64,000 bases of DNA, from positions 1-64,000 of the forward strand of contig JAIUOP010000011.1 of assembly GCA_020161815.1 (NCBI GenBank). Reading direction: 5' to 3'. The DNA comes from Actinomycetota bacterium (GTDB taxonomy: Bacteria > Actinomycetota > Actinomycetes > Actinomycetales > Dermatophilaceae). Shown here piece after piece: positions 1,011 to 63,956 of the stretch. How positions within the stretch are numbered: the stretch's first letter is position 1; every line of letters begins with the position of its first letter. The translations under genes and the position numbers were made by a program. The notes under the pieces are model-generated. The model worked only from the letters and a program-made list of their open reading frames with translations. It did no database searches and was not told where the DNA came from.

Positions 1011-2297
1011 TCACGACCCCTCGGCGGCGAGGAGGCCGGCAGCCATCGACTTCCGGCCCCGTCGCAGCACGGCGATCGAGCCGTGCAGGAAGTCGTCGGC
1101 GAGGAGCACTGCCTCCGCGTCGGTCACCTTGACCCCGTTGACCGACGCTCCCCCGTCGCTGATCGCGCGGCGCGCGGCATTGCGCGACTCGACCAGGCCG
1201 ACGGCGACGAGGGCTTCGGTCACCGGCATCCCGACGGCCACCACGCCGGAGGGCAGCTCGGCCACCGCGTCGCGCAGGGTCGCGGCATCCAGCGACCGGA
1301 GGTCGCCCTTCCCGAAGAGGGCCTCGGACGCCGCCTGCACCGCGGCATACGCCTGGGGTCCGTGGACGAGGGTCACCATGTCGCCGGCGAGCGCCTTCTG
1401 GGCGGCGCGGCGGAAGGGCTCGTCGGCGACCTGGCGCTCCAGCTCGGCGATCTCCTCGCGGCTGCGGTCGGTGAAGACCTTGAGCAGGGTGACCACCGAG
1501 GCGTCCTCGATGTTGAGGAAGTACTGGTAGAAGGCGTACGGACTGGTCATGTCCGCCGAGAGCCAGATCGCGTTGCCCTCGGACTTGCCGAACTTCACGC
1601 CCGAGGCGTCGGTGAGCAGGGGCGAGGTGAGGACATGCCCCGAGCCGCCCTCGGCGCGATGGATGAGGTCGACCCCGGCGGTCATGTTCCCCCACTGGTC
1701 CGACCCGCCCAGCTGCATCGTGCAGCCGTGGGCGCGGTAGAGCTCGAGGAAGTCCAGGGCCTGCAGCAGCTGGTAGCTGAACTCGGTGTAGGAGATCCCC
1801 TCCTGGCTCTCCAGTCGCGCCGCGATGGCCTCCTTCTTGACCATCTGGTTGACCCGGAAGTGCTTGCCCACGTCCCGCAGGAAGTCCAGCGCCGACATCG
1901 GCGCGGTCCAGTCGAGGTTGTCCACGAGGATCGCCGGGTGGGCGCAGTCCGGGTCGGTGCCCTCGAAGTCGAGGAAGGGCCGGACCAGCTCCTTGATCCG
2001 CGCGACATTGGCCGCCGTCTGGTCCTTGGTCTTCAGGACACGCTCGGACGTCGGCTTGGGGTCGCCGATGAGCCCGGTGGAGCCGCCGACGAGGCAGATG
2101 ACCCGGTGTCCGGCCCGCTGGAACCGGCGCAGCGCGATCAGCTGGACGAAGTTGCCGAAGTGCAGCGAGGGCGCGGTGGGGTCGAACCCGCAATAGAGCG
2201 TGATCGGTCCCGCCGCGAGTGCCTCCCGCAACGCGGTCTCATCGGTGGTCTGGGCCACCGCTCCGCGCCACTGCAGCTCGTCGAGGATGTCGCTCAC
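1011..2297 (-). CDS. tyrS: tyrosyl-tRNA synthetase
   Basis: Class I aminoacyl-tRNA synthetase that charges tRNA-Tyr in the cytoplasm. The Rossmann catalytic domain carries the HIGH-type motif as HFGN (about residue 46) and the KMSKS-type motif as KFGKS (about residue 235). Tyrosine-pocket segments such as LGGSDQWGN are present. The C-terminal 60-70 residues form an S4 RNA-binding domain. The chosen GTG start at 2297 gives 428 residues, the usual family length, and has a GGAAG ribosome-binding site; an ATG at 2360 would add 21 residues that do not look like TyrRS. It lies next to the rRNA operon and is read in the same direction. Confidence 0.95.
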   Translation of the reverse strand: MSDILDELQWRGAVAQTTDETALREALAAGPITLYCGFDPTAPSLHFGNFVQLIALRRFQRAGHRVICLVGGSTGLIGDPKPTSERVLKTKDQTAANVARIKELVRPFLDFEGTDPDCAHPAILVDNLDWTAPMSALDFLRDVGKHFRVNQMVKKEAIAARLESQEGISYTEFSYQLLQALDFLELYRAHGCTMQLGGSDQWGNMTAGVDLIHRAEGGSGHVLTSPLLTDASGVKFGKSEGNAIWLSADMTSPYAFYQYFLNIEDASVVTLLKVFTDRSREEIAELERQVADEPFRRAAQKALAGDMVTLVHGPQAYAAVQAASEALFGKGDLRSLDAATLRDAVAELPSGVVAVGMPVTEALVAVGLVESRNAARRAISDGGASVNGVKVTDAEAVLLADDFLHGSIAVLRRGRKSMAAGLLAAEGS

Positions 2298-2429
2298 GCT
2301 CGGATCTTCCTTCACTCTCGTGGTGGGCTGCCGCTCAGGGTCGGTATGCCGTGTGCTCACCTCAGCCTGTCACGATCGCCGCATGGGGGTGGTCACGGTC
2401 CGCGCCCGACCGCCGCATCGCCCACGCTG

Positions 2430-2633
2430 TCAGCGAACCCAGCCGTCGGCGTGCGCCTGCTTGAGTTGCCGAGCCCGCTCAAGAGCCCCTGAAGCAAGCG
2501 CCAGATCCACCAGGTCACTCAGGAGCAGCCAGCGCTCCGACGGAGTGCCACCGGCACGGCGAAGGACCGTGGCGGGAGCGTCAGACGTGCCCCACCACTG
2601 CGAGCCTGAAACATCAGCGAGCCGATCAGTCAT
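2430..2633 (-). CDS. small uncharacterised protein coupled to nucleotidyltransferase
   Basis: Encodes 67 residues starting MTDRLADVSGSQWWG and ending in a Lys/Arg/Gln-rich helix (ARQLKQAHADGWVR). I recognise no family. Its ATG lies inside the last codons of the upstream nucleotidyltransferase gene, so the two overlap by 8 bp and are probably translationally coupled. That makes it a likely functional partner. The sequence has no signal peptide, transmembrane segment or zinc motif. It could be a small antitoxin or accessory subunit, but nothing in it proves this. Confidence 0.55.
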   Translation of the reverse strand: MTDRLADVSGSQWWGTSDAPATVLRRAGGTPSERWLLLSDLVDLALASGALERARQLKQAHADGWVR

Positions 2634-3135
2634 TGTCCTCGAGTGTAGATCTCCGCCTGATCGCTTCCAGTGCCTCGATGTCCGCGACATCCTGTGGGCG
2701 GCCCGAGGCCCGCTTCATCTCCATCAGGTGATCCAGGCTCGCGACGCGGACGTGGTGACCGGCAACGTCCACGTCGACAGCATCGCGAGCGAGGTCCTCG
2801 AACGCGATGGGGGTGGTGGCCAGCAGGTCAACCTCGAGTCGCGCATCGCGGGGGTCGTGCATCGTGAAAGCGACCAAGTGACGGTCACGGACCCATGCCT
2901 CCCGGGTGGAGGGCTCGGCGAAGTCGGACGCGCTGACAGGGAGTCTGGGAACAAGTCCCTCCTCGGTGAGGACGTCCACCGCCGCGCGTACGTTGGCGCT
3001 CGCCAAGTCCAAGGCAAGGTCAAGGTCGACAGTGAGGCGGGTGTGCCCGTGGAGCACGACAGCGACACCGCCGACGACGACGTGTTCGACCCCGGCCGCG
3101 CGCAGTCGGTCGAGGATCTCGAGGAGCCGCCACAT
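2626..3135 (-). CDS. nucleotidyltransferase-fold protein (AbiEii/MNT-like)
   Basis: A 169-residue protein with the minimal nucleotidyltransferase signature: the glycine pair in VVVGGVAVVLHGHTRLT (residues about 20-36) is followed by the metal-binding acidic pair in DLDLAL, and a third acidic residue lies in LEVDLL (about residue 100). The C-terminal DVADIEAL segment is typical of this group. Related proteins act in toxin-antitoxin or abortive-infection modules, but many have unknown roles. The start is the ATG at 3135, and TAGGCT (3143-3148) sits 7 bp upstream, suggesting a leaderless mRNA. It is followed by an overlapping small gene. The substrate is unknown. Confidence 0.75.
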   Translation of the reverse strand: MWRLLEILDRLRAAGVEHVVVGGVAVVLHGHTRLTVDLDLALDLASANVRAAVDVLTEEGLVPRLPVSASDFAEPSTREAWVRDRHLVAFTMHDPRDARLEVDLLATTPIAFEDLARDAVDVDVAGHHVRVASLDHLMEMKRASGRPQDVADIEALEAIRRRSTLEDND

Positions 3136-3229
3136 GTGCCTCAGCCTAGGACTGCGTTCTCTCGAGCGAGGCCGGCCAAGACCATTCGGGCGTTGTCCGC
3201 CGATAGGACTCACGGCATACCGTGGGGCG

Positions 3230-62455: not shown

Positions 62456-62482
62456 TATGCAGACCGCCGTATAGTCTTGCAT
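62456..62482 (+). promoter_or_regulatory. argG promoter with ArgR-like half-sites
   Basis: TATAGT (62470-62475), a near-consensus -10, lies 9 bp before the argG GTG, so the mRNA is probably leaderless. Half-sites TATGCA (62456-62461) and TTGCAT (62477-62482) flank it about two helical turns apart, like the argC operator. The 12-mer ATAGTCTTGCAT also occurs near the argC operator. Confidence 0.5.
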
Positions 62483-62484
62483 TT

Positions 62485-63915
62485 GTGTCCAAGGTCCTGA
62501 TTTCACTGCCCGTCGGCGAGCGCGTCGGCATCGCCTTCTCCGGAGGGCTCGACACCTCCGTGGCCGTCGCGTGGATGCGCGAGCACGGGGCGATCCCCTG
62601 CACCTACACCGCCGACCTCGGCCAGTACGACGAGCCCGAGATCGACAAGGTGCCCGGTCGTGCCTTCGCCTATGGCGCCGAGATCGCGCGCGCCGTCGAC
62701 TGCCGCGCCGCCCTCGTCCAGGAGGGCCTCGTCGCGATGAGCTGCGGCGCCTTCCACATTCGCAGCGGTGGCCGGTCCTACTTCAACACCACTCCCCTGG
62801 GCCGCGCCGTCACCGGCACCCTGCTCGTGCGGGCCATGCACGAGGACGGCGTCGACATCTGGGGCGACGGCTCGACCTACAAGGGCAATGACATCGAGCG
62901 GTTCTACCGCTACGGCCTCATCGCCAACCCGGCGCTGCGCATCTACAAGCCCTGGCTCGACGTCGACTTCGTCGGCGAGCTCGGCGGCCGGCACGAGATG
63001 AGCGCCTGGCTCACCGAGCGGAAGCTGCCCTACCGGGACTCCCAGGAGAAGGCCTACTCCACCGACGCCAACATCTGGGGCGCGACGCACGAGGCCAAGA
63101 CCCTCGAGCACCTCGACGTCTCACTGGAGACCGTCGAGCCGATCATGGGCGTGAAGTTCTGGGACCCCAGCGTCGCCATCGAGACCGAGGACGTGACGAT
63201 CCGCTTCGAGCGCGGCCGCCCGGTCGCGATCAACGGGCAGACCTTCGCCGACGACGTGGCACTCGTCCTGGAGGCCAATGCCATCGGTGGCCGCCACGGC
63301 CTGGGCATGTCCGACCAGATCGAGAACCGCATCATCGAGGCCAAGTCCCGCGGCATCTACGAGGCCCCCGGCATGGCCCTGCTCTGGATCGCCTACGAGC
63401 GCCTGCTCAACGCGATCCACAACGAGGACACCATCGCCAACTACCACCTCGAGGGCCGCCGCCTCGGCCGCCTGCTCTACGAAGGCCGCTGGCTCGACCC
63501 GCAGGCTCTCATGATGCGCGAGTCCATCCAGCGCTGGATCGCCTCCGTCGTCACCGGCGAGGTCACCCTGCGCCTGCGCCGCGGCGAGGACTACTCGATC
63601 ATCAACACCACCGGCCCGGCCTTCTCCTACCAGCCGGAGCGGCTGTCCATGGAGCGCACCGAGAGCGCCGCCTTCGGACCGGCCGACCGCATCGGCCAGC
63701 TGACCATGCGCAACCTCGACATCGCCGACACCCGCGACAAGCTCGAGCTCTACGCGATGCAGCCGCTCGACGAGGGCCACGTCCGCGTCGAGCACGGCAT
63801 CCTCCTCGGCGCCCTGCCGCCCGGCGGACGCGACCAGATCATCGAGTCCGACGAACCGGCGAGCGATGAGGAGCGCGCGGTCGTCTTCGTCGACGGCGAG
63901 CTCGGCCACGACTGA
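62485..63915 (+). CDS. argG: argininosuccinate synthase, long type
   Basis: Condenses citrulline and aspartate using ATP. The 476-residue protein is the longer E. coli-like form. It shows the PP-loop [15 protein letters not shown] (about residue 18), [25 protein letters not shown] and [12 protein letters not shown]. It completes the pathway of the distant arg operon and probably shares its ArgR control. The GTG at 62485 fits the family N-terminus. Confidence 0.95.
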
Positions 63916-63921
63916 GGTTGT

Positions 63922-63956
63922 GGACGGCATACAAATAGGCTTTCCGTATGCCGTCC
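63922..63956. repeat. inverted pair of the CGGCATAC motif after argG
   Basis: GGACGGCATAC (63922-63932) and GTATGCCGTCC (63946-63956) form an 11-bp perfect inverted repeat around a 13-nt spacer. It starts 6 bp after the argG stop and may end that transcript, but its right arm also holds the start codon of the next gene and the spacer holds a -10-like TAGGCT. Confidence 0.7.

What the first reader, a model, noticed from the sequence alone, without database searches (positions are those of the whole stretch)
1343..63953. An octamer, CGGCATAC/GTATGCCG, repeated about 49 times
Manual scan finds octamer starts at 1343, 2344, 3213, 6516, 6929, 10234, 11976, 12847, 13336, 15361, 15813, 17464, 18102, 19610, 19938, 20923, 21082, 24756, 25140, 27114, 29092, 31312, 31807, 32248, 32633, 35266, 36386, 37452, 41723, 42564, 43597, 44168, 45254, 47354, 49364, 49753, 49984, 50485, 52333, 52434, 54409, 55838, 56564, 58201, 58599, 61567, 61599, 63925, 63946. 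At about 70% GC a rough calculation gives two to three by chance on both strands. All 20 GTATGCC copies are followed by G, and 29 of 30 GGCATAC copies are preceded by C. About 28 copies extend to ACGGCATAC. Orientation is mixed (29 versus 20), which argues against a strand-polar segregation signal. The pattern recalls uptake sequences of Neisseria/Haemophilus, cyanobacterial HIP1, or a methylation target. I know of no such element described for actinobacteria.
Basis: partly seen in the sequence, partly recalled or inferred. Interest (0 to 1): 0.85.

Follow-up and report, generated by a model that had tools for sequence, protein, structure and literature searches.

The report
Thousands of DNA-uptake-like octamers
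A family of soil and sewage-sludge bacteria carries the same eight-letter DNA word thousands of times per genome, in group-specific 'dialects' and with an unusual strand-dependent spacing; it looks most like an address label by which cells recognise DNA of their own kind, which I did not find described for this branch of bacteria.

Summary
The genome has 2410 copies (1208/1202 by strand), backward-read control 164. Codon usage does not explain it: 292 coding copies against 15.5±4.1 in synonymous shuffles. The excess is confined, as far as sampled, to one family (Dermatophilaceae/Intrasporangiaceae): 61 of 119 family genomes hold ≥500 copies; none of 241 other genomes of the class exceeds 386. 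Some relatives use one-base dialects, CGGCATCC or CCGCATAC; others have none. Inverted pairs form hairpins just after genes. These are hallmarks of DNA uptake sequences. ComEC, ComEA-like and Tad genes are present, but in motif-free relatives too.

New: copies in the SAME orientation avoid each other within about 1 kb (289 pairs against 552 expected, six data sets), opposite orientations do not. E. coli Chi is strand-polar and shows no such effect; this motif is not polar. Best reading: an uptake/self-recognition signal read strand-specifically. Function is inferred; no receptor was identified, uptake was not tested.

The parts
1343..1350 (+). octamer CGGCATAC
2344..2351 (-). octamer CGGCATAC (reads GTATGCCG on +)
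3213..3220 (+). octamer
6516..6523 (-). octamer
6929..6936 (+). octamer
10234..10241 (+). octamer
11976..11983 (-). octamer
12847..12854 (+). octamer
13336..13343 (+). octamer
15361..15368 (-). octamer
15813..15820 (+). octamer
17464..17471 (-). octamer
18102..18109 (+). octamer
19610..19617 (+). octamer
19938..19945 (-). octamer
20923..20930 (+). octamer
21082..21089 (+). octamer
24756..24763 (-). octamer
25140..25147 (+). octamer
27114..27121 (-). octamer
29092..29099 (+). octamer
31312..31319 (+). octamer
31807..31814 (+). octamer
32248..32255 (+). octamer
32633..32640 (-). octamer
35266..35273 (+). octamer (in glnE)
36386..36393 (-). octamer (in glnE)
37452..37459 (+). octamer (in glnE)
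41723..41730 (+). octamer
42564..42571 (-). octamer
43597..43604 (-). octamer
44168..44175 (-). octamer
45254..45261 (+). octamer
47354..47361 (+). octamer
49364..49371 (+). octamer
49753..49760 (-). octamer
49984..49991 (-). octamer
50485..50492 (+). octamer
52333..52340 (+). octamer
52434..52441 (-). octamer
54409..54416 (+). octamer
55838..55845 (+). octamer
56564..56571 (-). octamer
58201..58208 (-). octamer
58599..58606 (+). octamer
61567..61574 (-). octamer, left arm of hairpin
61599..61606 (+). octamer, right arm of hairpin
63925..63932 (+). octamer, left arm of hairpin
63946..63953 (-). octamer, right arm of hairpin
61567..61606 (.). terminator-like hairpin made of an inverted octamer pair, 27 nt after the end of the pyruvate dehydrogenase E1 gene (58756-61539)
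   Evidence: -37.9 kcal/mol, z -6.45
63925..63953 (.). terminator-like hairpin made of an inverted octamer pair, 9 nt after the end of the argininosuccinate synthase gene (62485-63915)
   Evidence: -23.5 kcal/mol, z -4.61

Best explanation
CGGCATAC is the core of a self-recognition (DNA uptake) signal of Dermatophilaceae, working like the DUS of Neisseriaceae or the USS of Pasteurellaceae but in single-membrane, high-GC bacteria most of which lack a type IVa pilus marker gene. Proposed working: a surface receptor of a Tad/Flp-pilus plus ComEA/ComEC competence machine binds DNA carrying the motif; kin DNA carrying it is imported and recombined, so the motif spreads and is kept genome-wide by biased transfer, and changed receptor specificity creates one-base dialects. 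Because same-orientation copies appear mutually redundant over about 1 kb and opposite-orientation copies do not, recognition or import would have to be strand-resolved: the motif is read on one strand, or sets the direction of entry. SHOWN: genome-wide excess, independence from codon usage, balanced strands, family restriction in the samples searched, dialects, genomes without it, hairpin pairs after genes, presence of com and tad genes, the same-orientation exclusion. INFERRED: that the motif acts in uptake, that these com/tad genes are the machine, that drive through recombination maintains it, and the strand-resolved reading step. The receptor is unknown.
For: 2410 copies, 1208:1202 by strand; 369 in 464 kb against 2.2-16.6 expected by four background models; codon-shuffle null 15.5 plus or minus 4.1 for 292 coding copies, and 180 of 419 TAT codons lie in the motif; density 1.39/kb intergenic, 0.71/kb coding; 61 of 119 family genomes with at least 500 copies (872-4724), none of 241 outside above 386; dialects CGGCATCC in 7 genomes of 3 genera (2099-4480 copies) and CCGCATAC in the 4 sampled genomes of one genus (511-1204); on a GlnE tree of 30 genomes the CGGCATCC pair is nested among CGGCATAC users; two genomes of genus g65 carry both words (1217+2195 and 1189+2099); 9 of 9 intergenic close pairs lie 3-68 nt from a called gene 3' end and the 5 folded are strong hairpins, an arrangement reported for DUS/USS (passages of PMC3630211, PMC13020248); longer consensus GNGCNCA-CGGCATAC-G in 47 unpaired intergenic copies; partial same-site conservation with turnover (5 of 12 and 7 of 22 sites); a 23-kb P. 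elongatus stretch with no copy; ComEC in 33 of 36, ComEA-type HHH_3 over its cut-off in 33 of 36, Tad-type ATPase in 36 of 36 family genomes, 29 over the cut-off; tad genes are required for transformation of Micrococcus luteus (passages of PMC4322843).
Against: No uptake experiment on these organisms turned up in the papers searched. ComEC, ComEA-type and Tad ATPase genes are equally present in motif-free relatives, so they do not track the motif. No receptor found; PilM_2 (type IVa pilus marker) in only 2 of 36. Single mismatches in positions 1-4 are at background (21 against 14-24), a sharper specificity than I recall for USS. Uptake by H. influenzae is reported not to depend on motif orientation (passages of PMC1939737), so strand-dependent spacing is not predicted by the classical model. 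The exclusion is weak between neighbouring genes (z -2.6 on one strand, -1.9 on opposite strands), strong within genes and with intergenic copies, and between genes on one strand it still shows at 1-2 kb (133 against 167.6, z -3.9), so its range is not cleanly 1 kb. The motif-free stretch is one case. P. elongatus and other relatives differ in the flanking letters.
Confidence: 0.5

Rival explanations
1. A Chi-like recombination hotspot: an asymmetric octamer recognised by the end-processing helicase-nuclease (AdnAB/RecBCD type) travelling from one side, protecting DNA and starting repair.
For: An asymmetric octamer, hugely over-represented; one-base variants among relatives are also reported for Chi (passages of PMC8022716); a directional action would fit a same-orientation redundancy.
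Against: Polarity with the leading strand is used as a criterion of Chi (PMC8022716); here nine contiguous segments of 60-220 kb show no strong bias (29:20 to 13:14), whereas E. coli Chi gave 111:35 in 650 kb. Chi itself shows no same-orientation exclusion (23 against 21.6 expected within 1 kb). Absence in close relatives would mean losing a repair signal. Hairpin pairs after genes are not a Chi feature known to me.
Confidence: 0.18
2. A strand mark: an asymmetric methylation target (or binding site) used to tell strands apart in repair or replication, needed at least once per strand every kilobase or so.
For: Would explain why redundancy is per strand and about 1 kb, balanced strands and spacing more even than random (CV 0.87; 1% of 500 simulations as even).
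Against: Methylation targets such as GATC are not enriched 50- to 100-fold (recalled); no methylase was linked to the motif (not searched); base modification could not be tested; absence in many family members would need loss of the repair scheme.
Confidence: 0.12
3. A nucleoid-organising or HIP1-like element kept by a chromosome-binding protein or by biased repair, not connected with DNA transfer.
For: Genome-wide, rather even distribution, twofold intergenic density; single-mismatch words with changes in positions 1-4 are not enriched.
Against: Not a palindrome; does not predict strand-dependent exclusion or hairpin pairs; no clear depletion of one-base precursors that a converting repair system would leave.
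Confidence: 0.1
4. A terminator or transcript-processing element.
For: 9 of 9 intergenic close pairs stand 3-68 nt from a gene 3' end and the 5 folded are strong.
Against: Most copies are inside genes (292 of 369), in both senses, and convergent, tandem and divergent spacers are about equally dense (1.30, 1.50, 1.43 per kb).
Confidence: 0.03
5. Codon usage or a conserved peptide.
For: Coding copies prefer certain frames (180 of 292 read as Tyr-Ala).
Against: Synonymous shuffle 15.5 plus or minus 4.1 against 292; 73 of 369 copies are intergenic at double density.
Confidence: 0.01

Closest known systems
DUS, DNA uptake sequence of Neisseriaceae (eight variants; PMC3630211, passages seen)
   Same: About 900-3200 copies per genome, intragenic and intergenic, inverted pairs linked to terminators, dialects following the phylogeny, family-restricted.
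   Different: Unrelated word; single-membrane Actinomycetota; no PilM_2 match in 34 of 36 genomes, so no obvious type IVa pilus or ComP; same-orientation copies avoid each other here (not examined for DUS); function not tested.
USS, uptake signal sequence of Pasteurellaceae
   Same: Short core, equal strands, even spacing (Karlin, as cited in PMC1939737), occurrence in terminators (PMC13020248, passages); a weaker flank around the core (recalled for USS, here).
   Different: Single mismatches at positions 1-4 not enriched here; uptake by H. influenzae reported independent of orientation (PMC1939737), whereas spacing here is strand-resolved.
Chi (E. coli GCTGGTGG)
   Same: Asymmetric over-represented octamer; related one-base variants among relatives (PMC8022716, passages).
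   Different: No replication polarity seen here; Chi in 650 kb of E. coli K-12 is polar and shows no same-orientation exclusion.
HIP1 of cyanobacteria (recalled)
   Same: Octamer with extreme genome-wide excess.
   Different: HIP1 is a palindrome; this motif is asymmetric with orientation-dependent spacing.
Flp/Tad-dependent transformation of Micrococcus luteus (PMC4322843, passages seen)
   Same: Same phylum; Tad genes with ComEA/ComEC homologues.
   Different: The words 'uptake sequence', 'DUS' and 'sequence-specific' do not occur in that paper's main text.

Membership tests
DNA uptake sequence (DUS/USS) | Genome-wide over-representation far beyond composition and codon usage | tested here: met
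DNA uptake sequence (DUS/USS) | Both orientations, no replication polarity | tested here: met
   1208:1202; forward share 0.476-0.524 in the 61 enriched genomes; nine segments 29:20 to 13:14
DNA uptake sequence (DUS/USS) | Inverted pairs as terminator-like hairpins | tested here: met
   (own genome only)
DNA uptake sequence (DUS/USS) | Clade-specific dialects | tested here: met
DNA uptake sequence (DUS/USS) | Scarce in recently acquired DNA | tested here: inconclusive
   one 23-kb motif-free stretch in P. elongatus; phage TJE1 has 2 copies in 49 kb, but its GC is 0.58 and its host's dialect was not determined
DNA uptake sequence (DUS/USS) | Host encodes a DNA-import machine | tested here: met
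   ComEC 33/36, ComEA-type HHH_3 over cut-off 33/36, Tad ATPase 36/36; not discriminating, motif-free relatives have them too
DNA uptake sequence (DUS/USS) | Motif raises DNA uptake or transformation | not testable with these tools
   needs a bench assay
DNA uptake sequence (DUS/USS) | Known receptor (type IV minor pilin such as ComP) | tested here: inconclusive
   PilM_2 in 2 of 36 argues against type IVa pili; Tad pilin-like genes exist but none was tied to the motif; ComP itself was not searched for
Chi | Polarity with the leading strand | tested here: not met
   against 111:35 for E. coli Chi
Chi | Recognised by RecBCD/AddAB/AdnAB | not testable with these tools
   -
HIP1 | Palindromic octamer (recalled) | tested here: not met
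   CGGCATAC is not its own reverse complement (sequence itself)
Methylation target | Modified base in the motif | not testable with these tools
   no long-read kinetics available
KOPS/FtsK-type polar signal | Orientation toward the terminus (recalled) | tested here: not met
Intrinsic terminator | Copies sit in hairpins after genes | tested here: not met
   true of a minority of copies only

The most novel reading that the evidence does not exclude
A strand-resolved DNA-import signal: the first uptake-sequence system of single-membrane bacteria, in which the motif is read on one strand (or fixes the direction of entry) so that each strand needs its own copy about every kilobase, evolving in dialects across a whole actinobacterial family and using a Tad-type rather than a type IVa pilus.
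Probability: 0.33. Interest if true: 0.95.

Novelty: new variant of a known kind. Interest (0 to 1): 0.87.

Why it matters
Uptake sequences appear only for Neisseriaceae and Pasteurellaceae in the passages I read, one of which (cut at its start) calls the requirement unique (PMC3630211). A third, unrelated, family-wide case in Actinomycetota would show that sequence-labelled sex evolved independently in bacteria with one membrane and another pilus, and offers a dialect series (including genomes carrying two dialects at once) in which co-evolution of receptor and motif can be followed. The same-orientation exclusion gives a length scale (about 1 kb) and a strand dependence that any mechanism must explain. 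The family includes sewage-sludge phosphate accumulators formerly called Tetrasphaera (abstract starts of PMC9123174 and PMC12978653 in the listing), so the motif could also guide transformation protocols.

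Tried and rejected
Codon-usage and single-peptide explanations: rejected by synonymous shuffling. Replication-polar signals (Chi, KOPS): rejected by counts in long segments and by a Chi yardstick in E. 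coli K-12. General terminator role: rejected. Type IVa pilus as receptor: PilM_2 in only 2 of 36. Com/tad presence as a discriminator between motif-bearing and motif-free genomes: failed. A by-eye comparison of genes at com and tad loci (13 loci of G000, G002, G003, G022, G027; seven of the 13 printed) singled out no candidate: genes without a match occur at motif-bearing and motif-free loci alike. The first tree is invalid because wrong reading frames were taken; trees of ComEC and GlnE, both quick searches with some weak branches, replaced it. An order-of-origin idea for the halved same-orientation count was dropped because it predicts clearly fewer convergent than divergent pairs; they are 243 to 281 between 100 and 1000 bp (summed). 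Other words in motif-free relatives (G012, G021, G024, G025) were weak or possibly local repeats. A comparison with real USS/DUS genomes for strand-dependent spacing was wanted and could not be reached.

Full report
CHECK. The window expectation is 1.1 (order-2 Markov). In 464 kb of the same genome (the window plus 20 stretches of 20 kb) there are 369 copies; expected 7.7 (order 2) or 16.6 (order 3), or 4.0 and 2.2 once the copies are masked from the background. It is the most over-represented octamer by the order-2 score; at order 3 only its own shifted form ACGGCATA scores higher. The whole genome holds 1208 + 1202 copies, the backward-read control 86 + 78.

NOT CODON USAGE. With a home-made gene caller (428 genes, 89% coding) 292 copies are coding, 73 intergenic and 4 at edges; density 0.71 and 1.39 per kb. 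Shuffling synonymous codons over the sample (50 shuffles) gives 15.5±4.1 coding copies, maximum 27. 180 of 419 TAT codons lie in the motif; Tyr before Ala is TAT 256: TAC 185, elsewhere 163: 1809. The most codon-adapted fifth of genes has 0.30 per kb, the two least adapted 0.91 and 0.94, as expected if the motif competes with codon selection.

SHARPNESS AND FLANK. The 24 one-mismatch words total 315 against 204-267 expected; changes in positions 1-4 are at background (21 against 14-24), and the excess sits mainly in CGGCATAG (30 against 3-5), CGGCATCC (84 against 49-53) and CGGCCTAC (53 against 25-27). In 47 unpaired intergenic copies the flank is also biased: C at -4 in 38, G at -5 in 31, A at -1 in 31, C at -2 in 30, G at -7 in 28, G at +1 in 30, giving GNGCNCA-CGGCATAC-G. 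Over all copies the flank differs between species (for example G at -1 in 0.59 of P. elongatus copies).

HAIRPINS. Seventeen neighbouring pairs lie within 60 bp in the sample; 8 are inside genes and 9 intergenic, and all 9 intergenic ones are inverted and stand 3-68 nt from a called gene 3' end. The 5 folded have z-scores from -4.6 to -7.7. In the window they follow the pyruvate dehydrogenase E1 and argininosuccinate synthase genes. This is the arrangement reported for DUS and USS (passages of PMC3630211 and PMC13020248).

WHO HAS IT. Family names are read from the record titles and from general knowledge; the genome tool itself gives only f1. In 119 family genomes of 53 genera (recounted) 61 hold at least 500 copies (872-4724; forward share 0.476-0.524), 18 hold 100-404 and 40 fewer than 100; with the two dialect words below, 70 of 119 are rich in at least one of three words. 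Outside the family: 22 genomes and 241 (at least 8 in both); the largest count is 386 in 7.5 Mb with control 176. In 62 named loci of other genera (L141-L202) no locus has more than 3.

DIALECTS AND LOSSES. A word search in 40-60 kb samples of 14 family genomes with few copies found CGGCATCC in G027 (68 against 4.7) and G018 (32 against 2.8) and CCGCATAC in G022 (29 against 1.1); the others gave weaker or doubtful words. Family-wide, CGGCATCC reaches 2099-4480 in 7 genomes of 3 genera (the others about 240-1040, G003 1336) and CCGCATAC 511-1204 in the 4 sampled genomes of genus g21 (intermediate 364-476 in G013, G020, G130, G144, G149). These g21 genomes keep 153-322 CGGCATAC. In g65 two genomes carry both words (1217+2195, 1189+2099) and two mainly the second (361+4480, 288+3619). 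On a quick maximum-likelihood GlnE tree of 30 genomes (30 of the 32 with a match, loci cap) CGGCATAC users occur in the main sub-clades, the CGGCATCC pair G018+G027 is nested beside G023 and G017, and motif-free genomes are scattered (G003, G012, G024, G021/G025, G011, G015, G004). The simplest reading is an old origin, later dialect shifts and several losses; independent gains are not excluded.

TURNOVER. In aligned coding sites 5 of 12 window copies are at the same site in P. elongatus (mean 76% protein identity, 15 orthologues) and 7 of 22 in Knoellia (70%, 34 orthologues); chance about 0.01. In GlnE, CGGCATAC occupies 15 different sites over the 30 genomes. Copies are gained and lost while the load is kept.

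ISLAND. P. elongatus has 23.4 kb without a copy (L208:10532 to L209:13926, about 1.79-1.81 Mb), holding glycosyltransferase, carbamoyltransferase and radical-SAM genes among those scanned; another copy-free stretch (first 14.6 kb of L207) has a Mutator transposase, an integrase-core protein and glycosyltransferases. One genome, not a survey. Phage TJE1 (host Tetrasphaera jenkinsii) has 2 copies in 49 kb, 0.9 expected, but its composition differs and its host's dialect is unknown to me.

STRAND-DEPENDENT SPACING. The new result. In six sets (1355 copies, 1.70 Mb: own genome, P. elongatus, Knoellia, G033, dialect genome G027, six named loci) pairs of the same orientation closer than 1 kb number 289 against 552 expected, pairs of opposite orientation 623 against 566 (summed). 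Set by set the same-orientation ratio is 0.50, 0.62, 0.33, 0.28, 0.62, 0.48. The pooled ratio is 0.42-0.64 in every bin from 8 to 1000 bp, 0.72 at 1.0-1.2 kb and 0.84-1.13 beyond; opposite pairs stay at 0.84-1.35 apart from the hairpin peak (1.90) below 100 bp; convergent and divergent are similar. In 500 label permutations per set the observed value lay below the minimum in 5 sets and equalled it in the sixth. Two small further dialect samples point the same way (G022 4 same to 13 opposite, G018 8 to 13). Of six control words in the own genome, five have enough pairs to judge: CGAGGACG 170 of 326, CCTGCTCG 92 of 168, CGGCCACC 44 of 82, CGGCATCC 6 of 11 and GCCGTGAC 4 of 11 same-orientation; the reversed motif had one pair. 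Corrected for gene strand and sense bias (gene calls for all species with the own genome's codon model) the deficit below 1 kb holds within genes (98 of 323, expected 170) and with intergenic copies (103 of 370, 185), and is weak between genes on one strand (67 of 159, 83.5, z -2.6) or on opposite strands (21 of 60, 28.5, z -1.9); at 1-2 kb it is gone with intergenic copies (227 of 456, 228) but persists between genes on one strand (133 of 319, 167.6, z -3.9), so the 1-kb limit is not clean. E. coli K-12 Chi in 650 kb (146 copies) is polar (111:35) and has 23 same-orientation pairs against 21.6. The papers seen report no orientation bias and no orientation effect for USS/DUS (PMC1939737 passages; PMC2346458 part 1 of 3); local strand-dependent spacing is not mentioned in what I saw of them. 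Whether USS/DUS genomes have it I could not test.

MACHINE. PF03772 (ComEC) in 33 of 36, PF12836 (ComEA-type HHH) over its cut-off in 33 of 36, TIGR03819 (Tad ATPase) in 36 of 36 with 29 over the cut-off, PF11104 (PilM) in 2 of 36. In the window's genome ComEC and a ComEA-type gene are adjacent (L203) and two Tad loci are present (L204, L205), with TadE matches in L205 and a 45-aa Flp-like protein (DUF4244) in L204. Motif-free relatives have the same genes, so the machine is compatible with the reading but does not prove it.

LITERATURE. Searches (PMC open library only) found no description of this element; the strings CGGCATAC, GTATGCCG and ACGGCATAC as whole words occur in one paper, on Ralstonia typing (listing only). 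Absence from that library is not proof of absence from print.

VERDICT. A real, dialect-forming octamer, spread through most sub-clades of one family, that meets the genome-level features of an uptake sequence that could be decided here and fails tested features of Chi, KOPS, HIP1 and a general terminator. The functional claim stays an inference (0.5). The strand-dependent exclusion is solid as an observation and is the part that would most surprise a specialist.

Noticed in passing
family genomes G086, G120, G143, G158 (genus g65): Two genomes carry about 1200 CGGCATAC plus 2100-2200 CGGCATCC, two sisters almost only CGGCATCC: a dialect change apparently caught half-way.
   Followed up: partly
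own genome sample, CGGCATAG: The most strongly enriched one-mismatch word (30 against 3-5 expected); perhaps a tolerated variant.
   Followed up: no
L143, L166, L171 (Kribbella): CGCCGTAC or CGGCGTAC over-represented (41 against 4.9, 26 against 4.1, 22 against 3.6 in 23 kb); may be codon usage or another genome-wide word.
   Followed up: no
L073-L075 (G024): CAGTTCGAC 32 against 1.3 and GCCGTGACC 33 against 2.8 in 60 kb of a motif-free family member; could be a repeated gene module.
   Followed up: no
L137 (Allobranchiibius), L076-L078 (G025), L087-L089 (G021): CGGCGTAC/CGTACGCC mildly enriched (CGGCGTAC 28 against 3.4 in L137; CGTACGCC 39 against 5.3 and 22 against 3.8 in G025 and G021); possibly a weaker further dialect with GTAC instead of ATAC.
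   Followed up: no
L156 (Nocardioides iriomotensis): AAGAAGAC 14 against 0.2 in 23 kb, probably a local repeat.
   Followed up: no
G026, G110, G136 (genus g25): Within one genus the copy number is 1062, 19 and 3681: a natural set for finding the gene whose loss removes the motif.
   Followed up: no
L208:10532 to L209:13926 (P. elongatus): 23.4-kb stretch without any copy, with glycosyltransferase, carbamoyltransferase and radical-SAM genes.
   Followed up: partly
L204:9693-9830: 45-aa Flp-like protein (DUF4244) in a Tad locus near a helicase gene; 71-88% identical among relatives, while the neighbouring TadE-like proteins match at 40-49% or not at all.
   Followed up: no
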